Of a DNA stretch of 64,000 nt, positions 8,970-20,869 are shown in pieces. The DNA is from Mesorhizobium sp. SARCC-RB16n (GTDB lineage Bacteria > Pseudomonadota > Alphaproteobacteria > Rhizobiales > Rhizobiaceae): positions 62,001-126,000 of the forward strand of contig NZ_ML703266.1 in NCBI RefSeq assembly GCF_008520305.1, in the 5' to 3' direction. The notes beneath the pieces are model-generated. The model was not told the DNA's origin, did not search any database, and saw nothing but the letters and a program-made list of their open reading frames with translations. The position numbers were made by a program, and so were the translations under genes. Within the stretch, counting starts at the first letter, position 1, and each line of letters begins with the position of its first letter.

Positions 8970-10157
8970 ATGTTGACCATCGGCAAACGCGACGCAAGCG
9001 GCACGACCGCCTCGGGGGCTGACCATGACCCGCGTGTGGCGGTCGGCGAGGAGGATGGCGTCCTCGGCTGCGCGTTCTCTGGTATCTGGACGACACGGAC
9101 CGTGGCGCTGATCGACGCGGACATGCGCAAAATCGAGAAACGAAGCGGTTTCAAGACCTTGGCGCTCGATCTTTCGAAAATCGAAAAAATCGATACCGCC
9201 GGCGCCTGGCTGATCGATCGGCTGGTCAGCGTCTTCGAGAAGAAGAATGTCGAGGTAAGGCTGCAAGGCCAAAGCGAGATCGCTTCCATCCTGCTCGACG
9301 CGGTTAGCGAGGCCGTCCGGCGCGAACCCGAATCCGGGCCTGCGCGGCCGCCCAATATTGTCATCCGGGCGCTGGAGGCGGTTGGCCGGCGCGTCTACGA
9401 GATGCGCGACGATTTCCTCTCCTCGATGAACATATTGGGCGCCACAATCCGCGGCGCGCAGATGAAGCTCGGCCGCGGCCATGCCGTAAATCCGGCGGCG
9501 ATCTTCAACCAGATCGATCGCATGGGCGTCGGCGCGATCCCCGTGGTGGTGCTGATGTCGGCGATCGTCGGCGCCATCGTCGCCCAGCAAGGCGCCTATC
9601 AGCTCAGCTATTTCGGCGCCGACATCTTCGTCGTCGACCTCGTCGGCGTGCTGATCCTGCGCGAACTCGGCGTGCTGATGACGGCAATCATGATCGCCGG
9701 CCGCTCCGGTAGCGCGATCACCGCCGAAATCGGTTCCATGAAGATGCGCGAGGAGGTCGATGCGCTCAAGGTCATCGGCCTCAACCCGATCGGCGTCCTG
9801 GTCTTTCCGCGCCTTGTGGCGCTGGTGATCGCCTTGCCGTGCCTGACGATCATCGCCAATTTCGCCGCACTCGGCGGCGGCATTGTCGCCGCTTGGCTTT
9901 ATTCCGATATCCCACCCGCTGCATTCATCGACCGGTTGCGTGTCGCAATCGATCTCAGCACGATTTTCGCCGGCCTGATCAAGGCGCCGTTCATGGCCAT
10001 GATCATCGGCACGATCGCCTCCGTCGAGGGCATGAAGGTCGGCGGCAGTGCCGAATCGCTCGGCCAGCACGTGACCGCTTCGGTGGTGAAATCGATCTTC
10101 GTCGTCATCATCCTCGATGGGCTTTTCGCCATGTTCTATGCAGCGATCCGGTTCTAA
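8970..10157 (+). CDS. mlaE: MlaE-type lipid ABC transporter permease with N-terminal STAS domain
   Basis: About 395 residues. Residues about 20-115 form a STAS domain (DGVLGCAFSGIWTTRTVALI, then TLALDLSKIEKIDTAGAWLI). The rest is an MlaE permease with long hydrophobic helices, GVLILRELGVLMTAIMIAGR and the conserved cytoplasmic segment AEIGSMKMREEVDALKVIGL. In E. coli the STAS partner MlaB is a separate protein; here it is fused to the permease. The complex moves phospholipids between the inner and outer membranes. The start at 8970 has AGGA five bases upstream; an in-frame ATG at 8910 is possible. It is the first gene of a four-gene operon. Confidence 0.92.
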   Translation: MLTIGKRDASGTTASGADHDPRVAVGEEDGVLGCAFSGIWTTRTVALIDADMRKIEKRSGFKTLALDLSKIEKIDTAGAWLIDRLVSVFEKKNVEVRLQGQSEIASILLDAVSEAVRREPESGPARPPNIVIRALEAVGRRVYEMRDDFLSSMNILGATIRGAQMKLGRGHAVNPAAIFNQIDRMGVGAIPVVVLMSAIVGAIVAQQGAYQLSYFGADIFVVDLVGVLILRELGVLMTAIMIAGRSGSAITAEIGSMKMREEVDALKVIGLNPIGVLVFPRLVALVIALPCLTIIANFAALGGGIVAAWLYSDIPPAAFIDRLRVAIDLSTIFAGLIKAPFMAMIIGTIASVEGMKVGGSAESLGQHVTASVVKSIFVVIILDGLFAMFYAAIRF

Positions 10158-10161
10158 CAAC

Positions 10162-10971
10162 ATGGCAAAGGGCAACGGAGTCACGACTGAGGTGCAGGAC
10201 GAGGGCGAGATCGTGCTTTCGGTGCGCGACGTCACCGTTGCCATCGACGACAAGCTGATACTCGACAAACTGTCGCTCGACATCAAGCGCGGCGAGATAT
10301 TGGGGTTCGTCGGTGCCTCGGGCGCCGGCAAGTCCGTGCTGCTGCGCACCATTCTCGGGTTGATGCCCAAGCAGTCGGGAGCGATCAAACTATTCGGCGT
10401 CGACGTCGACAAGGCAAGCGATATGGAGCGGCTGCGCATCGACATGCGTCTTGGCGTGCTGTTCCAGCACGGTGCACTGTTTTCGGCGCTGACCGTGCTG
10501 GAGAACGTGCAGGTGCCGATGCGCGAATATCTCGACTTGCCGAGGAAGCTGATGGACGAACTGGCACTGCTCAAGATCGAGCTGGTCGGGCTGCCGCCGG
10601 ACGCGGCGCAGAAATTCCCCTCCGAACTCTCCGGCGGCATGATCAAGCGTGCCGCACTTGCGCGCGCTCTGGCGCTCGATCCAGACATCGTCTTTCTCGA
10701 CGAGCCGACGTCCGGTCTCGATCCGATCAGCGCGGCCGAGTTCGACGAACTCGTCGTCAAGCTGCGCGACACCATGGATCTCACCGTCTACATGGTCACG
10801 CACGACCTCGACACGCTATTCACCGCCTGCGACCACGTTGCGGTGCTCGGTAAGAAAAAGGTGCTGGTCGAAGGCACTATCGACGACATGCTGAAGAGCG
10901 AGGAACCCTGGGTGAAATCCTATTTCCGCGGAAAACGCGCCCGGCAACTTGATCTTGCGGCGCGTGCATAG
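10162..10971 (+). CDS. mlaF: MlaF-type lipid ABC transporter ATP-binding protein
   Basis: The 269-residue ATPase has Walker A GASGAGKS, signature LSGGMIKRAALARAL, Walker B DIVFLDEPTSGLDP and switch His in YMVTHDLDTLF. SGGM instead of SGGQ is usual for the MlaF/MCE-associated ATPases. It powers the MlaE permease encoded four bases upstream. The start at 10162 (MAKGNGV) follows directly after the mlaE stop, which suggests coupled translation. Confidence 0.94.
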   Translation: MAKGNGVTTEVQDEGEIVLSVRDVTVAIDDKLILDKLSLDIKRGEILGFVGASGAGKSVLLRTILGLMPKQSGAIKLFGVDVDKASDMERLRIDMRLGVLFQHGALFSALTVLENVQVPMREYLDLPRKLMDELALLKIELVGLPPDAAQKFPSELSGGMIKRAALARALALDPDIVFLDEPTSGLDPISAAEFDELVVKLRDTMDLTVYMVTHDLDTLFTACDHVAVLGKKKVLVEGTIDDMLKSEEPWVKSYFRGKRARQLDLAARA

Positions 10972-10985
10972 CCATAAGTGAAGCA

Positions 10986-12359
10986 ATGGAAACCAGAGCC
11001 AACTACGTCATTGTCGGCATTTTCACGCTGGTTGCGATCCTCGCGGCTTTCGGCTTCGTCTATTGGACGGCCGCGATCGGCGACAGGGGCGAGACGACGC
11101 TGCTGCGGGTGCGCATTCCAGGCTCGGCGTCCGGTCTAGGCCGCGGCAGTTTCGTGCTGTTCAACGGCGTCAAGGTCGGAGACGTCAAGCGCGTCTATAT
11201 CGACGTCGACAATCCGACCGTCGCCATCGCCGACACCGAGGTCGACCGGATGACGCCGATCACCAAGTCGACACAGGCCGATATCGGCCTTGCCGGCCTC
11301 ACCGGCCAGGCCAACATCGAACTCAAGGGCGCCGACCCCAAGGAAGTGAAGCTGCTCGACCAGGCCGAAAAGGAAGGCAAGGTCGCCGAGATCGTCGCCA
11401 ATCCTTCGGCCGTAACCAATTTGTTGCAGACGGCCCAGAACATCTTCACCCGCGCCGACAAGGTGCTGACGGAGTTGGAAGGCTTCACCAAGGATGTGCG
11501 CGGACCGCTGACGCAGACCGTGCACAATGTTCAGACGTTTTCCGATGCACTGGCCAGGAATTCCGACGGTATCGACAAGTTCCTGTCCGCCGTCAGCGCG
11601 CTGTCCGATGAGCTGAAAGGCGTTTCAGGAAAACTCGACGGCACGTTGAAGGCTGCGGAGGGCCTGCTCAATGCCGTCGACAAGGACAAGATCAAGAGCA
11701 TCGTTGCCAATGTCGATACGGTGACGGGGAACCTCAAGGAAACCTCACGGCAGCTCGACGGTGTGATCAAGAACGTCGATACGGCGGTGGGGTCGGTCAA
11801 CGACTTCGCCAAGCAGACGCAAGGCACGCTAGCCAAGGTCGACGGCGTGCTCGACGGCATCGACCCGGCGCAGGTGCGCCAAGCGCTGGCCAACATCCAG
11901 AAGGCCAGCGACAGTGCCAACAAGGCGGCTGCCGATATCGCGGAGGTGACCGGCAAGATCGCCAATCGGGCCGACGACATCGACCAGACAATCAAGGACG
12001 CCAGGCAACTGGCGCAACGGCTCAACGACGCTTCGGTGCGGGTCGACGGTATCCTCGCCAAGGTCGACAAGCTGCTCGGCTCGGGTCAGGCCGACGGCGT
12101 GATGGCCGATGCAAGGGATACGCTTAAATCGTTCAAGCAGGTCGCCGATACGCTGAATGCCCGTCTTGGAGTCATCACCGACAATCTGGCGCGCTTCTCC
12201 GGTCAGGGGTTGCAGAATGTCGAGGCGCTGGTGCAGGACAGCCGCCGCTCGATCAACCGCATCGAGGAGGCGGTGACGGATCTCAGCCGCAATCCGCAGC
12301 GCATCCTTTCGGGTGGCGAAGGCGAGGTTCGGCAGTTCGACGGCAGGGCGCGGCGTTGA
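10986..12359 (+). CDS. mlaD: MlaD-family MCE protein with long helical C-terminus
   Basis: The 457-residue protein is anchored by one N-terminal helix (YVIVGIFTLVAILAAFGFVYW, about 6-27), followed by an MCE domain (about 38-115: RVRIPGSASGLGRGSFVLFN, IGLAGLTGQANIELKG). The remaining 300 residues are a repetitive, Val/Asp/Lys-rich predicted helix with many LNAVDKDKIKSIVANVD-like turns. MCE proteins form hexameric rings that pass lipid across the periplasm; a long helical tail suggests a tube-like or needle-like extension rather than the short E. coli MlaD. It is 14 bp after mlaF. Confidence 0.93.
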   Translation: METRANYVIVGIFTLVAILAAFGFVYWTAAIGDRGETTLLRVRIPGSASGLGRGSFVLFNGVKVGDVKRVYIDVDNPTVAIADTEVDRMTPITKSTQADIGLAGLTGQANIELKGADPKEVKLLDQAEKEGKVAEIVANPSAVTNLLQTAQNIFTRADKVLTELEGFTKDVRGPLTQTVHNVQTFSDALARNSDGIDKFLSAVSALSDELKGVSGKLDGTLKAAEGLLNAVDKDKIKSIVANVDTVTGNLKETSRQLDGVIKNVDTAVGSVNDFAKQTQGTLAKVDGVLDGIDPAQVRQALANIQKASDSANKAAADIAEVTGKIANRADDIDQTIKDARQLAQRLNDASVRVDGILAKVDKLLGSGQADGVMADARDTLKSFKQVADTLNARLGVITDNLARFSGQGLQNVEALVQDSRRSINRIEEAVTDLSRNPQRILSGGEGEVRQFDGRARR

Positions 12360-13701: not shown

Positions 13702-13775
13702 AACTCAGGATCCGGTTCCGGAAAACGAGATAAAACCCGAATGCGTCTTCCGGGTAGCGACATCAGTCCTTCAAG

Positions 13776-13809
13776 AAAAAAGGCGGGAGATAAGTCCCCC
13801 GCCTTTTTT
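13776..13809. terminator. Strong intrinsic terminator, bidirectional, after the GPR-like gene
   Basis: A 12-bp stem, aaaaaaggcggg (13776-13787) with cccgcctttttt (13798-13809), encloses a 10-base loop. On the minus strand it lies just after the stop codon of the giant gene and ends in six T. It should insulate that gene from the exonuclease gene downstream. Confidence 0.88.
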
Positions 13810-13830
13810 CGTTCTTGGCGTGTCGACCGC

Positions 13831-16800
13831 TTAGTGCAGGCGGCCGCTGGCATGGGCCAGCATGGTGTAGACCTTGCCGGTGTCCGACGTGAGATAAGTC
13901 TGCGCCATGATGTTGTCGCGGTCGTTGCGCGAGACATCCTTGAGCAGCTTCTCGAAATCGTCGCAATAGCGGTCGACGGCGGCGCGGAATTCGGCCTCCG
14001 CCTGGTACTTGCGGCGGATTTCGTCGAACGTCTGCTGGCCCTTCAGCGTGTAGAGCCTGCGCGTGAACACGTCACGCTCGCCACGCCGGTAGCGGTTCCA
14101 CAGCTCGATCGAGGCATCGTGGTCGATGGCCCGCGCGATATCGACGGACAGCGAGTTCAGCGATTCCACGACATGCAGCGGCGAACGCTGGGCAGGGGCC
14201 GCGCGCGGTGCTTCCGCAGGCGCCTGGGGGGCCGCCGGCCTGAGGTCGGCATCGTTAGACGCAGCGGTCAGCAGATCACGCACCCAGCCGCCTTGCGGCG
14301 CGCGGGCAGTGGCGTCGGCGGCACGCTGGCGCGGTGCTGCCTCTGCCGGACGCTCAAGATCGAGCGTGCCGCGCAGTCCCGCGCCGCCCAGCGGTGCCTG
14401 CGGCGGGCGCAGATCCGGCTGCTGCGGTGCCGGGGCACGACGCGGCGGCTCGGCGGCGCGTGCCGCCGGGGCCTGCGGCGCCGGGCGCAAGGGGCGTGGT
14501 TCCAAGGAGTCGCCGCCACGACCGGACTTCGCAACGATGTCCGAAAGCTCCTTCAAGGCGTTGATCTGCTCGGAAACGGCGCGGCGGATGGCCGAGGTCG
14601 ATTCCTTTGCCTCTTCCGGCATCTCGATGACGCCTTTCTTGAGTTCGGCGCGGGTCAGGTCGAGTTCGCTCTTGATCGAACCCGCGGTGCGCCGCATTTC
14701 CTCGGTCGCATCGGCGAAGCGCTTGGTTGCCGACTCGACGACATCGGTAATGGCGTTGCGGATCTTGTCGGCCGATTCCAGCGTCTTGCCTTCGGCGTTC
14801 TGCAGTGTCTGGCCGACGAGGTTCTCGAAAGAACGCATGACCCTTTCGAGATCTTCCGACTTCTTGACCAGGCCAACGGCGAGATCCTCGAGCGACGACT
14901 GTCTTTCCAGCGTGTGTTCGAGGTTGCTCTGGGCCGAACTCAGGAGGTCCGAAGCGCCGGCGAGCAGGCGGCTGTGTTCGTCGAACTTGGTGGCGATCGA
15001 GGCGACTTCACGCAAGGTCGACGACGACAGTTCCGTCAGCCTTGTCGTGTTCGAATCGACCAGACGCGCCGAGCTGGCAAAGGTCTGCGCCGCCTTTTCG
15101 GTGGTCGCCGCGAAGCTTTGCGTGCTGCCGGTCAGACGTTGGTCGACCTCGCCGAGGTTGACCGCGGCCTGCTCGATCAACTGACCGAGCTGCGAGCTGG
15201 ACTTGGTCATACGGCCGATGAGATCGGCGACGCTGTCGGACAGCGACGAACGGGCGCCTTCGACCGCCGACAAGGTCTCGGCGGTGCGGCTGGCCAGCGC
15301 GTTGACCAGGGTCGCATTTTCGCTGCGCAGCTTCTCGGTCGCACGTTCGGTGACCTCTTCCATGCTCCTTTGCAGTTCCGAGCCGCCCTGGGCGAAGCGC
15401 TCGACCAAGGGCCGCGCGGTTTCGTCGAGGATCTTCGACATCTCGGCGGACCGTGCCGCCAGCATGGTGTTGAGTTCGCGGGTGTTGGCGCCGATCGTCT
15501 TGGCTGCGTCGTTGGTGCTCTGGCCGATATGCTGGCCAACCGCGGTGAAGGTCTCCGCGATCACGTTGGCGCGCGATATGAGTTGCGCCTCGGCGGTCGA
15601 CACCTGCTCGTTGATCCTCTGGCCCATCGTCTCGGCAGTGTAGGCAAGCCGGTTTTCGACGCCGGCGATCTGCTCTTCGACACGGGCGGCAGCGGCCGCC
15701 GCGCTCGACGCGAGACGCTCGTCGGCGCCGGCAAGCGCCTGCTCGATTTCGCGGGCATGCACGGCCAGGTCCTGGCCGGTCTGGCGCGCGCGATCGGCGA
15801 CCCTCTGCTCGGTGTTTGCGAAGGCGCCGACAATGGTCTGCGCATGCTCGTCGATCGTCGAGGTGCTGTCGGCGATGCGCGAAACCAGGCGCTGGTCGGC
15901 GTCGTCGAAGATGCGGGCGATTTCGGACGCCCGGCTGGACAGCGCGTCCGAACCCTCGGCGATGCGCGAGACCAAATGCTGGTCGGCGGCGTCGAAGATG
16001 CGGCCGAGGTCCGACGCGCGGGCGGCGAGGGCCTCGGCGGATTCGCCGATACGCATGCCGAGCCGCTGGTCGGCGCTTTCGAAGTTGCGCAGGATGTCGC
16101 CGGCGCGGGCGGCTAGCGACTGGGCTGTTTCCACGGCACGGGCGACCAGCTTCTGGTCGGCCGCGTCGAACGTGCCGGCAATCTCGCTTGCGCGGGCGGC
16201 CAGCTGATCGGCGGCCTCCTGAGCCCGGGCGGCCAGTTGGTCAGTGGTTGCTTGTGCGCGGGCGGCGAGCTTCTGGTCGGCCATGTCGAAGGCGCCGGCG
16301 ATCTCGCCAGCGCGAGCGGCGAGCTGATCGGCGGTTTCATGGGCGCGGGCCAGCAGCGAGCTGGAGGTGTCGTCGGCGCGGGCGAGCAAGGCGTTCGACG
16401 TATCTTCCGCACGTGCGTGGAGGCGACGATCGGCCTCCTCGAAGGTGCGGGCAATGTCTTCGGCCCGTGCCAGCAGCGCGGCGGACGTCTGTTCGGCGCG
16501 CTCGGCAATCTTGCGATCGGCGTCGCTGAAGGCGGCACCGGCCTGCTCGTGCAGCGTGCTGGTGACTTCCAGCACCTTTTCGCGCAAGGCGCCGGCGACG
16601 AAGACAGCGCTCTTCTCGAGCACGCCGCGGATGTTGTCGACACCAGTCGACAGCGCGCGCTCCATGGTGCCGGCGCGTTCCTCAATGATGCCGGTCTGGC
16701 GGCTGAACGCCTGCTCGATCTTGTCGACATCGGCAGCGATCGCGGCGGAAATGTCCGTGCTCCTGGCCGCGATCTGGTCGATGTGGCCGGACAGCGAGCG

Positions 16801-19800
16801 ATCAACGTCCCTGCGGCTCTCGGCGAGCTTGCCGAGATCATCTTCCAGCGCGCGGCTGAGCATATTGCGGCCTTCGGACAACTTGCCGACATGTCCGGCG
16901 ATGATATCGTCGATATCGCCGCGGCTTTCGGACAGCCTCTGCAGGTCGGCTTCGAGGGCGCGCTTGAGAATGTCGCGGCCCTCGGCGAGCTTTTCGACCT
17001 GGCCAGCGACCAGACCATCGATGCTTGAGCGGCTCTCGGCCAGCTTGGCAAGGTCGGCCTCCAGCGCGCGCTTGAGGACATCGCGGCCCTCGGCGAGCTT
17101 CTCAACCTGACCGGCGACCAGACCGTCGATGCTGGAGCGGCTCTCGGCCAGCTTGGCGAGATCGTCCTCCAGCGCCCTCGACAAGGTGGAACGCTCCTGG
17201 ACAAGCCGTTCCGCGTGATTGTTGACGTGGCCGCTAACGGTCAGCAGGTCGGCCTCAAGAGCTCTCGACAAGGTCGAACGATCCTGTGCAAGCCGCTCGG
17301 TGTGGCTGTTGACGTGGCTGCCGACAGCCTCGAGGTCGGCTTCCAGCGCCTTCGACAGTGTCGAACGCTCCTGGACAAGCCGGTCCGAGTGGCTGCTGAC
17401 AAGGCTGTTGACGGTTTCGAGATCGGCCTCCAGCGCGCGGGCGAACTGGGCACGGTCGTCGACCAGTTTCTGGGACTGGTCGGTAACGGTGTTTCTGACC
17501 GTGTTGAGGTCGGCCTCCAATGCGCGGCGCAGGATGTCGCGACCTTCGGCCAACTTCTCGACCTGGCCGGCGACCAGCCCGTCGATGCTGGAGCGGCTTT
17601 CGGCCAGCTTGGCGAGATCGTCCTCCAGCGCTTTCGACAAGGTCGAGCGATCCTGAACCAGCCGGTTCATGTGGTCGGCGATGACGCTGTTCACATTCTG
17701 CAGATCGGCTTCCAGGACGCGCGAGAGCTGTCCGCGATCCTCGGCCAGTTTGTCCGACTGGCTCGATATGACGTTCTTGATGGTGTTGAGGTCGGATTCC
17801 AGCGCACGCTTGAGGATGTCGCGGCCCTCGGCCAGCTTCTCTACCTGGCCGGCGACCAGCCCGTCGATGCTGGAGCGGCTTTCAGCCAGCTTGGCGAGGT
17901 CGGCTTCGAGAGTCTGCGACAGCAGGCTGCGGTCTTCTGCCAGTCGTCCGGAATGGCTGTCGATCAGGCCGCGTATGCCCGACAGGTCGCTTTCGAGCGA
18001 ACGGCCGAGCTGCGTGCGGTCTTCGGCCAGTTTCGCCGAATGCGCCTCGATGAGGTTCTTGATACCGGCAATGTCGTTTTCCAGCGCCTTGGCAAGCACC
18101 GCGCGACCCTCGGCGATTTTCTCGACCTGGCCGGCGACAAGGCCGTCGATGTCGGCGCGGCTGTCGGACAATTTGCCGAGATCGGCCTCCAGGGCACGCG
18201 AAAGAATGTTGCGGCCCTCAGCCAGTTTCCCAACATGTCCAGCGACCATTTCATCAATGATCGTACGAGCTTGAACCAACTTTCCGGAGTCTTCGTTGAG
18301 AGCCAGTGAGAGCCGGTTACGGCCTTCTTCCAGCCTTTCGAGGTGGCTGCCGAGCGACGCATCGATGGCGGCCCGCGATTCGTTGACCTTGCGCAGGTCT
18401 TCTTCGAGCGCACGCGCTATCAGGCCGCGGCCTTCGGCCAGCTTCTGCACCTGGTTGGTCACCGCCGCATCGATGCCGGCGCGGCCCTCGGCGAATTTCG
18501 CCAGGTCCGCCTCCATGGCGGCAGCCATGCGCTCGCGGCTCTCGGAGAGCTTGCGGCTGTGGTTTTCGACGGCTTCCTCGATGCCGACGCGGGCATCGGC
18601 AAGCCGCTGGATGTCGGCGTCGAAGGAACGCGACACGACGTGGCGGGCTGCCTCCATACGGCCGGCGAAATCGCTGGCGCGCGCTTCGAGCATGGAAGAG
18701 GTCGAGGTGACGATATCGGCCATGTCGGCGCCGATCTGGGTCTTGCCCTGATCGATCATGGCCGACAGCGTGTCCTTGCTCTCGGCGAAGGTGTGGGCGA
18801 TTTCACGCGCACGCTCGACCAGCGTTTCGTTGATCTGGCGAGCACGGGCCTCAAGCGCCGCATTGAGCTTCTGCGTGCCGGTATCCAGCGCTTCGGCGCG
18901 GGTCTGGAATTCGCTGATCAGCGCCTGGCCACGTTCGGCCAAGGTGCGCTCGATGCCGTTGAGGCTGGCCTCGAACTCGGAATTGAGGGTGCGCGCGGCA
19001 CCGCCGAGCAGCGACACCATGCCGGTGGTGCGGTCGTCGAGGAGGTCGGTCAACGAGCGGGTCAAGCCGTCCGTGGTGTCCGTCAGCTTGGCGATACGGG
19101 TGTCGAGCAGACTGGCGAAAGCCTCGCCGGAGGTCGAAAGCCGGTCGGTGATGTTGTCGAGACGGCCTTCCACCGAATCGAAGATCGACATCGAGCTTTC
19201 GTTGATGCGGTCGATCAGCGTGTCGCCGGAATTGGTGATCGTCATCGACAGTTTGGTCGACGCATTGAGGATGCTGTCGCGGATGATGTCGCTTGCCGCG
19301 CCGATTTCATCGCGCAACGTCTCGTGCGCGCCCGAGATCGAGGCGCGGACGCGTTCGGCATGGGTGACCACCGCTTCGCGTTCGCTGCCCAGTCCGTCGA
19401 CCAGCGACCTGATCCGGGTTTCGTTTTCCGAATAGGAGCGCTCGATCTGGTTGACCTCACTGTGGACCAGCGTTTCCAGCTCGACGGCACGGGCAAGGGT
19501 GCGTTCGATGCCTTCCCCCATGGCAGCCACCTCGCGACGGACGGCCTGGCCGATCATCATGACGCGATCCTGAGCCATGTTTTCCGGCTCGGTCAGGCGG
19601 AAGGCCACTTCCGTCATCGATTGCGCGGCGATGCGCATGTCCTGGGCGCGGCGAATCATCGCTGCGAAGGCCCAGAACAGGATGACGGGCACGATTGCTG
19701 CGACGCCGAGGCCGATCAGTTCGGGGCGGGCAAAGAACTGGTCCAGCGTGCGTATCCGCCAGATGCTCGGTCCAAAAAGCAGGTTGGCCAGTCCGCCGGC

Positions 19801-20226
19801 GCCCGCGATCCAGGCGAGCGAGACAAAGGCGATGACCCAGTAGATGGTGTTGGAGGCGCGCCTGTTCAGGCTGTGCAGAAGGGTTTTGTAATCTTTCTGA
19901 CGATCGTCGTTGGCTGGCGCGAAGCCAGCGGGCTGGCCGCCGTTGCGCGTCTCCACCGGGCGAAGCTCGGCCGGCTTGGCCTTTGGCGCGGGCATCGCGG
20001 CCTGAGCCTGATTGACGACGGGCGCCGCTGCCGGCTGCTGATTGCGTCCCTCGCGTGCCAGCTCGTCGGCGGCCTGCGATATCTGGGCTTCCAGATCTTC
20101 CATCGAAGCCGCGATATCGAGGTCGCCGCTGTCGGCATCGCCGCTCAGGTCGAGATCGAGCGCTTTTTCGAGTTCCCTGGCTACGTCGCTGTCGAGATTT
20201 CTGGTCGTCGTTGGTTTCTTCGCCAT
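13831..20226 (-). CDS. Giant repetitive coiled-coil membrane protein, GPR/RgsE growth-pole-ring type
   Basis: This is a 2131-residue protein. Residues 1-120 are acidic and Ala/Pro rich, two membrane helices lie at about 127-151 and 170-191, and the rest is almost all predicted helix with apolipoprotein-like repeats (for example SIDGLVAGQVEKLAEGRD in four identical copies, then GEIAGAFDMADQKLAARA-type units). A Pro/Ala linker near 1870-2030 precedes a C-terminal globular domain (about 2030-2131: WNRYRRGERDVFTRRLYTLK). Length, two N-terminal helices, repeats and C-terminal domain agree with Agrobacterium GPR (growth pole ring) and Sinorhizobium RgsE, which organise unipolar growth. Assignment is from memory of the family, not alignment. 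Confidence 0.85.
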   Translation of the reverse strand: MAKKPTTTRNLDSDVARELEKALDLDLSGDADSGDLDIAASMEDLEAQISQAADELAREGRNQQPAAAPVVNQAQAAMPAPKAKPAELRPVETRNGGQPAGFAPANDDRQKDYKTLLHSLNRRASNTIYWVIAFVSLAWIAGAGGLANLLFGPSIWRIRTLDQFFARPELIGLGVAAIVPVILFWAFAAMIRRAQDMRIAAQSMTEVAFRLTEPENMAQDRVMMIGQAVRREVAAMGEGIERTLARAVELETLVHSEVNQIERSYSENETRIRSLVDGLGSEREAVVTHAERVRASISGAHETLRDEIGAASDIIRDSILNASTKLSMTITNSGDTLIDRINESSMSIFDSVEGRLDNITDRLSTSGEAFASLLDTRIAKLTDTTDGLTRSLTDLLDDRTTGMVSLLGGAARTLNSEFEASLNGIERTLAERGQALISEFQTRAEALDTGTQKLNAALEARARQINETLVERAREIAHTFAESKDTLSAMIDQGKTQIGADMADIVTSTSSMLEARASDFAGRMEAARHVVSRSFDADIQRLADARVGIEEAVENHSRKLSESRERMAAAMEADLAKFAEGRAGIDAAVTNQVQKLAEGRGLIARALEEDLRKVNESRAAIDASLGSHLERLEEGRNRLSLALNEDSGKLVQARTIIDEMVAGHVGKLAEGRNILSRALEADLGKLSDSRADIDGLVAGQVEKIAEGRAVLAKALENDIAGIKNLIEAHSAKLAEDRTQLGRSLESDLSGIRGLIDSHSGRLAEDRSLLSQTLEADLAKLAESRSSIDGLVAGQVEKLAEGRDILKRALESDLNTIKNVISSQSDKLAEDRGQLSRVLEADLQNVNSVIADHMNRLVQDRSTLSKALEDDLAKLAESRSSIDGLVAGQVEKLAEGRDILRRALEADLNTVRNTVTDQSQKLVDDRAQFARALEADLETVNSLVSSHSDRLVQERSTLSKALEADLEAVGSHVNSHTERLAQDRSTLSRALEADLLTVSGHVNNHAERLVQERSTLSRALEDDLAKLAESRSSIDGLVAGQVEKLAEGRDVLKRALEADLAKLAESRSSIDGLVAGQVEKLAEGRDILKRALEADLQRLSESRGDIDDIIAGHVGKLSEGRNMLSRALEDDLGKLAESRRDVDRSLSGHIDQIAARSTDISAAIAADVDKIEQAFSRQTGIIEERAGTMERALSTGVDNIRGVLEKSAVFVAGALREKVLEVTSTLHEQAGAAFSDADRKIAERAEQTSAALLARAEDIARTFEEADRRLHARAEDTSNALLARADDTSSSLLARAHETADQLAARAGEIAGAFDMADQKLAARAQATTDQLAARAQEAADQLAARASEIAGTFDAADQKLVARAVETAQSLAARAGDILRNFESADQRLGMRIGESAEALAARASDLGRIFDAADQHLVSRIAEGSDALSSRASEIARIFDDADQRLVSRIADSTSTIDEHAQTIVGAFANTEQRVADRARQTGQDLAVHAREIEQALAGADERLASSAAAAAARVEEQIAGVENRLAYTAETMGQRINEQVSTAEAQLISRANVIAETFTAVGQHIGQSTNDAAKTIGANTRELNTMLAARSAEMSKILDETARPLVERFAQGGSELQRSMEEVTERATEKLRSENATLVNALASRTAETLSAVEGARSSLSDSVADLIGRMTKSSSQLGQLIEQAAVNLGEVDQRLTGSTQSFAATTEKAAQTFASSARLVDSNTTRLTELSSSTLREVASIATKFDEHSRLLAGASDLLSSAQSNLEHTLERQSSLEDLAVGLVKKSEDLERVMRSFENLVGQTLQNAEGKTLESADKIRNAITDVVESATKRFADATEEMRRTAGSIKSELDLTRAELKKGVIEMPEEAKESTSAIRRAVSEQINALKELSDIVAKSGRGGDSLEPRPLRPAPQAPAARAAEPPRRAPAPQQPDLRPPQAPLGGAGLRGTLDLERPAEAAPRQRAADATARAPQGGWVRDLLTAASNDADLRPAAPQAPAEAPRAAPAQRSPLHVVESLNSLSVDIARAIDHDASIELWNRYRRGERDVFTRRLYTLKGQQTFDEIRRKYQAEAEFRAAVDRYCDDFEKLLKDVSRNDRDNIMAQTYLTSDTGKVYTMLAHASGRLH
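16840..18520 (-). repeat. Internal repeat array within the GPR-like gene
   Basis: The coding DNA holds many near-identical copies of a roughly 90-150 base unit that encodes alternations of 'LAESRSSIDGLVAGQVEKLA' with 'RDILKRALEADL' and 'SHSDRLVQERSTLSKAL'. Copies centred near 17010, 17130, 17590 and 17865 are almost identical at DNA level, while flanking units have drifted. The array is prone to recombination and to misassembly. Confidence 0.85.
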
Positions 20227-20485
20227 GCCTTCGCTACCCTGTACTAGCTGCCGCGGGGGCTTATAATTCTGGTTGTCTTACCCCCGCGCAGGAGGCTGAA
20301 AATGGACCCTCGTATCGTAATGACACAGGGGGGTAAAGAAAACATGCATTCCGCGGGATACGTAAAACTTTAAATATAAGGTTAACGGAAGCGTGATTTG
20401 GGCGCCGTTTTCGCAACATTTTTCCCGGCCATTCATTAACCCGTTGTCCACTGGATTCGCCTAGTTTTTCAGGCGGCCGAAGAAA

Positions 20486-20869
20486 ATGGAGTTCGAGTTC
20501 ATGCGTGGCGAAAGCGGCATTGCCTTTTCAATGCCCGGGGGCGACGTATCGGGAACGAGGCAGTCCCGGCCGGTCGATTTGGCACACCTTGCCCGGCAAA
20601 CGATGGGCGACCGCGCCCTCGAGCAGGAGGTCCTGGCGCTGTTTGTACAGCAGGCATTGTCGGTGCGCGACAAAATAGTCGATGCCGACATCAAGGACCG
20701 GCTTTTGCTGGCTCATGGCTTGAAAGGGTCGGCCCGCGGCGTGGGCGCCTTCGCCATCGCCGAGTGTGCCACCGACATCGAGCGCCGGCCGGAGGACGTC
20801 CAGACGCTCAAGCGGCTCGGCAGGCTGATCGACGAGGTACGCGACTTCATCGCCGCCATCAATCGCTGA
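20486..20869 (+). CDS. Hpt (histidine phosphotransfer) domain protein
   Basis: The 127-residue protein has a helical Hpt core with the phospho-acceptor motif AHGLKGSARGVGA (His at about residue 77) and no other recognisable domain. Such proteins shuttle phosphate between hybrid kinases and response regulators. It is divergent from the GPR-like gene (259 bp apart). An ATG at 20501, with GGAG nine bases upstream, is an alternative start. Partners cannot be inferred from the window, although a hybrid kinase with a receiver domain (CckA) is encoded 15 kb away. Confidence 0.85.
   Translation: MEFEFMRGESGIAFSMPGGDVSGTRQSRPVDLAHLARQTMGDRALEQEVLALFVQQALSVRDKIVDADIKDRLLLAHGLKGSARGVGAFAIAECATDIERRPEDVQTLKRLGRLIDEVRDFIAAINR

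What the first reader, a model, noticed from the sequence alone, without database searches (positions are those of the whole stretch)
13831..20226. 2131-residue growth-pole-ring-like protein with a recombination-prone repeat array
Two N-terminal membrane helices, apolipoprotein-like helical repeats and a C-terminal domain match GPR/RgsE, a scaffold for unipolar growth. Near-identical DNA repeats at 17-18.3 kb imply that repeat number may vary between strains and tune the length of the structure.
Basis: partly seen in the sequence, partly recalled or inferred. Interest (0 to 1): 0.7.

Follow-up and report, generated by a model that had tools for sequence, protein, structure and literature searches.

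The report
Polar-growth scaffold with modular rod length
This gene encodes the known growth-pole ring protein that rhizobia and relatives use to grow from one end, and the middle of its long helical rod gains and loses whole helix-sized blocks between species while the rest of the rod keeps a fixed length.

Summary
The ORF is real (window 13831-20226, minus strand, 2131 aa). It is an ortholog of S. meliloti RgsE, hence of the GPR family: two N-terminal membrane helices, 72% identity over residues 1979-2130, shared gene order. "Near-identical" overstates the repeats here: best unit pairs are 81-89% identical, longest exact repeat 41 nt. Variable repeat number is right between species. In 70 proteins, mostly Mesorhizobium, residues 102-575 and 1513-1903 keep their length. 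In 72, array A (576-1131) tiles exactly into 36- and 29-residue units in 71, with 29 unit orders and at least 42 changes on a tree; array B changes by 11 and 18 residues. All steps are close to whole helical turns; the linkers lack this pattern. The nearest genome, 97% identical in the core, has one extra 36-mer, 98% identical to its neighbour. Other Rhizobiales genera change by multiples of 11 or 40. I read this as recombination swapping helix modules in a scaffold rod under purifying selection (dN/dS 0.09). Whether length tunes the ring is untested; strain-level variation was not shown, and four Sinorhizobium records show no rod change.

The parts
13831..20226 (-). GPR/RgsE-type polar growth scaffold gene, 2131 aa
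   Evidence: ORF; RgsE comparison; C-terminal domain found in 142 of 150 genomes sampled in the order
19924..20226 (-). N-terminal linker, residues 1-101, length varies without quantisation
   Evidence: 23 distinct lengths in 72 proteins, mean cosine of helical phase -0.10
19789..19845 (-). membrane helix 1, residues 128-146
   Evidence: hydropathy window 1.81
19654..19710 (-). membrane helix 2, residues 173-191
   Evidence: hydropathy window 2.49
18502..19644 (-). fixed-length helical segment, residues 195-575
   Evidence: no length change in 70 aligned proteins; hydrophobic period 3.645
16834..18501 (-). array A, residues 576-1131: seventeen 36- or 29-residue units in the order LLLLssLssLssssLLL (L=36, s=29)
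   Evidence: exact tiling in 71 of 72 proteins; 29 unit orders, at least 42 changes on the core tree; period 3.615
16504..16833 (-). segment between the arrays, residues 1132-1241, fixed in length in 69 of 70
   Evidence: residues 1116-1240: 125 aa in 69, 109 in L069
15691..16503 (-). array B, residues 1242-1512, 18- and 11-residue units
   Evidence: eight lengths (220-336 aa) differing by 11 and 18 in 72 proteins
14518..15690 (-). fixed-length helical segment, residues 1513-1903
   Evidence: no length change in 70 aligned proteins
14200..14517 (-). Ala/Pro-rich linker, residues 1904-2009, length varies without quantisation
   Evidence: 14 distinct lengths in 72 proteins, mean cosine -0.05; composition
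13834..14199 (-). conserved C-terminal domain, residues 2010-2131, predicted all-helical
   Evidence: 72% identity to RgsE over residues 1979-2130; found in 142 of 150 order genomes and 71 of 190 class genomes; AlphaFold2 helices at low confidence
20486..20869 (+). divergent neighbour: single-domain Hpt (histidine phosphotransfer) protein, 127 aa
   Evidence: PF01627 E 5.2e-7, over cut-off; divergent and adjacent in 79 of 81 and 35 of 46 loci
20368..20386 (-). conserved motif in the shared intergenic region, CtrA-box-like (resemblance recalled)
   Evidence: GTTAACC within 280 nt upstream of the start in 71 of 71 genes; one match of the 19-mer in the window, none in 100 shuffles

Best explanation
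This is the Mesorhizobium GPR/RgsE protein. Its N-terminus is anchored in the inner membrane by two helices, some 1700 residues of nearly straight amphipathic helix follow, and a Pro/Ala linker leads to a conserved C-terminal domain; it scaffolds the single growing pole (function carried over from RgsE and GPR, not tested here). The rod is built of 11- and 18-residue helical modules. Two stretches of it gain and lose whole modules, most simply by unequal recombination between repeats. Changes near a whole number of helical turns are the ones retained (11 is about 3 turns, 18 about 5, 29 about 8, 36 about 10), because the hydrophobic seam and a recurring Arg/Asp pair must stay in register for the helices to pack. 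Shown: module quantisation, confinement to two arrays, near-copies in the same genome, purifying selection. Inferred: that the rod is helix (from periodicity), recombination as the route, helix packing as the constraint, and the arrays as tolerated spacers between fixed functional segments.
For: RgsE ortholog: 72% over residues 1979-2130 and shared Hpt, ferredoxin and DUF922 neighbours. Fixed segments: zero length variance over residues 201-700 and 1501-1900 in 70 proteins. Exact 36/29 tiling in 71 of 72 against 17 of 300 random in-frame deletions of the window's array. Length differences keep helical phase (mean cosine 0.85 for A, 0.96 for B at a period of 3.62; 0 of 20000 random sets reach either; linkers -0.10 and -0.05). 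Extra units: median 93% identity to a same-genome copy against 64% for all same-type pairs; 28 of 41 distinct extra units have the best copy within 3 units. dN/dS 0.09 in array A, 0.04 in the core. Low-contig genomes: 19 of 20 tile exactly, the other has a split ORF. Outside Mesorhizobium all 26 internal rod indels in congeneric pairs over 70% identity are multiples of 11 or 40. Arg 99-100% and Asp 100% at module positions 30-53 degrees from the centre of the hydrophobic face.
Against: In most congeneric pairs under 60% identity off-lattice gaps appear (for example 14, 19, 25, 62, 69, 117 aa); alignment there is unreliable but true off-lattice changes are not excluded. L069 needs 18 off-register residues (half an L unit) in array A; L198 has two extra off-register residues in array B. 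L042, counted as tiled, holds 19 unknown residues in array A. The period 3.62 of the phase test was chosen after seeing the spectra. The tree behind the change counts was a quick one with 19 of 69 inner branches weak. No structure of the rod could be predicted. No localisation or function was tested. Thirteen of 41 distinct extra units have their best copy more than 3 units away, and 19 of 41 have none at 90% or more, so older or non-tandem exchange also occurs.
Confidence: 0.8

Rival explanations
1. The array is a molecular ruler: repeat number is selected and sets the size of the growth-pole ring or its distance from the pole tip.
For: Rod length differs widely (array A 415-903 aa, about 62-135 nm of helix at 0.15 nm per residue) and in neat steps; the first 9 units are nearly invariant (69 of 72); a ring of 200 nm diameter is published for GPR (PMC8262873 sections).
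Against: Arrays differ between close sister species, and I know of no shape difference to match (none was looked for); arrays A and B do not compensate for each other (71 contrasts, r 0.11); the GPR authors argue the protein must fold up, because foci are only 50 nm.
Confidence: 0.2
2. Repeat number sets binding valency: each module binds a partner (a peptidoglycan synthase, lipid, RgsA, TolQ), and copy number tunes how much is recruited.
For: Strong purifying selection inside units (dN/dS 0.09); nearly invariant Arg and Asp in every unit; RgsE interacts with RgsA, RgsS and TolQ (PMC7327166 passages).
Against: Other genera of the order have other dominant repeat lengths (22, 33, 40, 44 aa), so a conserved per-module binding site is unlikely; the invariant residues fit helix packing equally well.
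Confidence: 0.15
3. The repeats are true apolipoprotein-type lipid-binding helices that sort membrane lipids at the pole.
For: PF01442 match E 2.4e-23; 11/22-residue periodicity dominates in the order (22 among the top four offsets in 36 of 47 proteins); proposed in PMC8262873.
Against: The score is under Pfam's curated cut-off; the same model rings, under its cut-off, in 7 of 14 unrelated control genomes, so it reads generic amphipathic helix; modest hydrophobic moment 0.19-0.23 with an invariant Arg near the hydrophobic face.
Confidence: 0.15
4. The repeat differences are assembly artefacts.
For: Many source records are multi-contig drafts; L032 has a 485-nt exact repeat at 477-nt spacing, a place where assembly could err.
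Against: Genomes in one to four contigs show the same kind of variation (19 of 20 tile exactly, with unit orders old and new); most repeats are short and diverged (median longest exact repeat 42 nt), within reach of short reads.
Confidence: 0.02

Closest known systems
RgsE of Sinorhizobium meliloti (SMc00190) and GPR of Agrobacterium tumefaciens (Atu1348)
   Same: Length class (2089 and 2115 aa in print), two N-terminal membrane helices, long helical middle, C-terminal Pro-rich stretch (GPR), conserved C-terminal domain and gene neighbourhood (RgsE)
   Different: Mesorhizobium rods are built of 36/29-residue units; RgsE's strongest offsets are 22, 106, 29 and 44
TipN of Caulobacter crescentus (882 aa)
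   Same: Membrane-anchored coiled-coil new-pole landmark (passage); called similar or analogous to GPR in print (PMC8546619 and PMC13170164 passages)
   Different: I had no TipN sequence to compare, so the relation was not tested here; far shorter
Scy and FilP of Streptomyces and other Actinobacteria
   Same: Long hendecad (11-residue) coiled-coil rods; FilP is enriched towards the poles; the group ranges from under 200 to over 1000 residues (PMC9858780 passages)
   Different: No DivIVA-type domain found in this protein; membrane-anchored; works alike, not kin
Periscope Proteins of bacterial surfaces
   Same: Rod length varies through tandem repeat number, correlated with DNA repeat identity (PMC9704523 passages)
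   Different: Those are surface-attached tandem domains; this is a cytoplasmic helical rod in a growth scaffold

Membership tests
GPR/RgsE | very long protein with two N-terminal membrane helices | tested here: met
   2131 aa, segments 128-146 and 173-191
GPR/RgsE | conserved C-terminal domain | tested here: met
   72% identity over residues 1979-2130 to the RgsE CDS of S. meliloti Ak57
GPR/RgsE | continuous helical, apolipoprotein-like middle | tested here: met
   by periodicity only: hydrophobic period 3.64 over residues 195-1890, power 28.5 (200 shuffles of array A reach at most 10.0); PF01442 match is sub-threshold
GPR/RgsE | same locus as rgsE | tested here: met
   Hpt, 2Fe-2S ferredoxin and DUF922 protease beside the gene in both; the window adds a reductase and an MFS gene
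GPR/RgsE | sequence similarity to GPR of A. tumefaciens itself | not tested
   no GPR sequence was in hand; RgsE is reported 42% identical to GPR (PMC7327166 passage)
[quoted passage not shown] shape defect when depleted | not testable with these tools
   needs microscopy
Pfam Apolipoprotein PF01442 | score over the curated cut-off | tested here: not met
   83.3 bits against 90
Periscope Proteins | attached to the cell surface | not testable with these tools
   the relative RgsE is cytoplasmic and membrane-anchored by reporter fusion (PMC7327166 passages), which speaks against it
Periscope Proteins | repeat number varies among strains of one species by long reads | not tested
   the genome collections used hold one genome per species; four Sinorhizobium records show no rod change
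TipN | sequence similarity to TipN | not tested
   I had no TipN sequence and did not search the collections for one
Scy/FilP (DivIVA-like) | N-terminal DivIVA-like motif | tested here: not met
   no DivIVA family among the seven Pfam matches up to E 0.1

The most novel reading that the evidence does not exclude
GPR is an evolvable intracellular ruler: helical modules are added and removed in register, and the number of modules sets the geometry of the growth-pole ring, and so tip shape or cell width, in unipolar-growing Rhizobiales.
Probability: 0.15. Interest if true: 0.8.

Novelty: new variant of a known kind. Interest (0 to 1): 0.5.

Why it matters
How Rhizobiales grow from one pole without MreB is open, and GPR/RgsE is a leading scaffold candidate. 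Sister species offer natural rods of 12 to 28 units in array A on fixed ends, so the role of rod length can be tested by array swaps. The quantised steps also suggest what the rod must preserve (helical phase), which favours a packed helical bundle over a loose lipid-binding helix, and they extend length-variable repeat rods, known from bacterial surfaces, to the inside of the cell.

Tried and rejected
Apolipoprotein homology as such: rejected as a membership claim, since the Pfam match is under its cut-off and the model rings in 7 of 14 control genomes. NCBIfam (whole protein) and PHROGs (C-terminal domain) gave nothing. PDB sequence search with the C-terminal domain gave two chance-level hits (E 0.33 and 0.47). 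AlphaFold2 of residues 1890-2131 gave helices but mean pLDDT 53, so no fold is named. No Rfam match at 13.0-21.5 kb; no promoter- or terminator-like site in 20200-20520. Compensation between arrays A and B: not found. Length alone (36a+29b) was not used as proof, since many integers fit; residue-level tiling with a deletion control was used instead. A position-by-position identity of the three Sinorhizobium loci is not meaningful because they are not aligned; I rely on ORF length and the Ak57-K101 rod alignment. Rows dropped: of 80 loci, 11 were cut by contig ends or had broken ORFs, leaving 69; with the window this made the 70, and G001 and G137 were added to make 72. Of 23 genomes in four or fewer contigs, two were already held (G001, G137), 20 were tested, and G366 was first left out; its ORF is split into open stretches of 1908 and 431 aa and its array was not tiled.
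Full report
OBSERVATION. The window holds one 2131-aa ORF at 13831-20226 on the minus strand. The nearest held genome, G001, shares 21% of sampled words and carries the gene at 98% protein identity in two matching pieces; the best named relatives are Mesorhizobium. Hydropathy shows two membrane segments, 128-146 and 173-191. Repeat finders report, among others, periods of 87, 108 and 282 nt between 16.1 and 18.2 kb.

IDENTITY. PMC7327166 (abstract and passages) describes RgsE as 2089 aa, membrane-anchored by two helices, cytoplasmic, a homolog of GPR. A S. meliloti Ak57 record in the plasmid collection carries a CDS of 2089 aa, labelled kinesin, at this locus. The window protein aligns with it over nearly its whole length (31% over 2316 columns; with low-complexity filtering 28% over 1626) and at 72% over residues 1979-2130. 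Both genes have a divergent Hpt gene, a 2Fe-2S ferredoxin and a DUF922 protease beside them. The C-terminal domain occurs in 142 of 150 genomes sampled in the order, in 98 of 99 in the genus, and in 71 of 190 in the class, three of those 71 belonging to the order. In 46 loci (order, class and plasmid collection) the protein length ran from 716 to 2899 aa; 41 had two or more hydrophobic windows in the first 320 residues, and the N-terminal query matched 44. No sequence of A. tumefaciens GPR (2115 aa) was compared; its features are from PMC8262873 (abstract and sections 3, 5, 9 and 12). The original 2019 PNAS paper is not held.

ANATOMY OF THE ROD. From 80 loci, 69 full-length proteins plus the window were aligned. 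Residues 201-700 and 1501-1900 show no length change, whereas 801-1100 and 1301-1500 vary strongly. Gap-free runs include 102-714, 1132-1281, 1347-1903 (in two adjoining runs) and 2010-2131. With G001 and G137 added (72 proteins), array A (576-1131) is tiled by 36-residue (L) and 29-residue (s) units with nothing left over in 71 of 72; the exception, L069, leaves 18 residues, half an L unit. One of the 71, L042, holds 19 unknown residues there. As a control, 17 of 300 random in-frame deletions of 1-99 residues in the window's array still tile. Array B is tiled by 18 and 11, with the same two boundary residues over in all 72. The 36-mer is 18+18 and the 29-mer is 11+18, by eye.

PHASE. Hydrophobic periodicity peaks at 3.615 residues in array A and 3.630 in array B; the peak of array A is far above 200 shuffles (39.3 against a maximum of 10.0). 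An undistorted helix has 3.63 residues per turn (PMC9858780 passage). At a period of 3.62, chosen after those spectra, length differences within each array are close to whole turns: mean cosine 0.85 (17 distinct differences) and 0.96 (7), reached by 0 of 20000 random sets each. The N-terminal linker and the Pro/Ala linker, which also vary, give -0.10 and -0.05. In 693 L units Arg7 is 99% and Arg25 100% conserved and Asp35 100%; in 556 s units (one with unknown residues dropped) Arg18 and Asp28 are 100%; these lie 30-53 degrees from the centre of the hydrophobic face. I infer inter-helix salt bridges that hold a register.

TURNOVER. On a quick tree of 3270 fixed-length core positions (19 of 69 inner branches weak), the unit order of array A (29 states) needs at least 42 changes and that of array B (8 states) at least 16. 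Of 49 pairs with 95% or more core identity, 29 differ in array A and 7 in array B. G001 (96.9% core identity to the window) has one extra 36-mer that is 98.1% identical to its neighbour; L066 has an extra L-s-s block against L053 (98.4% core identity) at 95-98% to the block beside it. Over all 29 pairs, extra units have a median best same-genome identity of 93% against 64% for all same-type pairs; of 41 distinct extra units, 22 have a copy at 90% or more and 28 have the best copy within 3 units. dN/dS is 0.09 in array A, 0.07 in B and 0.04 in the core (102 pairs at 94% or more). Arrays A and B do not compensate for each other (71 contrasts, r 0.11). Of 23 genus genomes in four or fewer contigs, two were already held and 20 were fetched next: 19 of the 20 tile exactly in array A (18, one), some with unit orders not seen in the 72; in the other, L196, the ORF is split in two. 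In array B, 17 of the 18 examined there fit and L198 has two extra residues. The last of the 23, G366, also has a split ORF.

BEYOND MESORHIZOBIUM. Offsets of 22, 44, 66 and 11 dominate elsewhere in the order: 22 is among the four top offsets with z over 4 in 36 of 47 proteins. I aligned congeneric pairs in nine unnamed genera plus Sinorhizobium, ignoring differences at the cut ends. Pairs over 70% identity gave 26 internal rod indels, from seven genera: 19 multiples of 11 (11, 22, 44, 55, 88, 99, 209) and 7 of 40 or 80; mean cosine 0.76 over 16 distinct genus-size cases at 3.64. These pairs are not independent. In most pairs under 60% identity off-lattice gaps appear, where alignment is unreliable. 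Four Sinorhizobium records show no rod change: K101, M103 and C101 give the same ORF length, and Ak57 against K101 has no internal indel in the rod, though these two differ by about 5% in DNA over the gene.

INTERPRETATION. The simplest account is a scaffold rod with fixed functional ends and two elastic stretches that turn over by recombination between repeats, filtered by helical phase. The function (scaffold for unipolar growth) comes from the published RgsE and GPR work. Whether module number matters to the ring is open; PMC8262873 notes that the protein must fold to fit 50-nm foci. In the listings of my searches I saw no paper on repeat-number variation in GPR/RgsE, judging by titles and abstract starts and by the passages read: all papers found were listed (12; 5; 7; 1; 2; 8), but only 20 of 33 and 5 of 3,690. 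The library lacks most subscription papers, and supplements were not read. The GPR-TipN likeness is already in print.

NEIGHBOURHOOD. A one-domain Hpt gene (20486-20869, plus strand) faces the gene across 259 bp. It is divergent and adjacent in 79 of 81 loci of the Mesorhizobium set (in the two misses the record starts close to the gene) and in 35 of 46 others; a Sphingomonas record also annotates one there, missed by my search. This is a candidate link between a phosphorelay and polar growth that I did not follow further.

Noticed in passing
window 20486-20869 (+): A single-domain Hpt protein gene is divergently paired with the GPR gene in 79 of 81 Mesorhizobium-set loci and 35 of 46 wider loci, and is annotated there in Sphingomonas (the motif His is not kept there, by eye): a possible phosphorelay partner.
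   Followed up: partly
window 20368-20386: The motif GTTAACCTTATATTTAAAG in the shared intergenic region is strongly conserved (GTTAACC in 71 of 71) and resembles a CtrA box with one extra base (consensus recalled); 31 of 35 wider intergenic regions hold a TTAAC half-site, without a chance estimate.
   Followed up: partly
window 10117-12359 (+): An ABC ATPase and an MlaD-domain gene lie 3' of the GPR gene on the other strand; the MlaD-like protein has matches in 62 of 80 Mesorhizobium-set and 17 of 46 wider loci, hinting at lipid transport beside the scaffold.
   Followed up: partly
L196, L212, L061, L078: The GPR ORF is broken: open stretches of 1263 and 1034 aa in L196 and of 1908 and 431 aa in L212, both from genomes in few contigs, and longest open segments of 1594 and 1633 aa in L061 and L078; sequencing error or real loss is undecided.
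   Followed up: partly
L204 (+ frame), window 13741-16116 and 18343-20247 (+): Very long antisense ORFs run opposite the gene (2123 aa in L204), probably a by-product of high GC and repeats.
   Followed up: no
L032 array A: A 485-nt exact direct repeat at 477-nt spacing: a very recent duplication or an assembly error.
   Followed up: no
L169, L151: Short relatives (716 and 774 aa) with two hydrophobic segments and the same C-terminal domain occur outside the order; such proteins may include TipN, not tested.
   Followed up: partly
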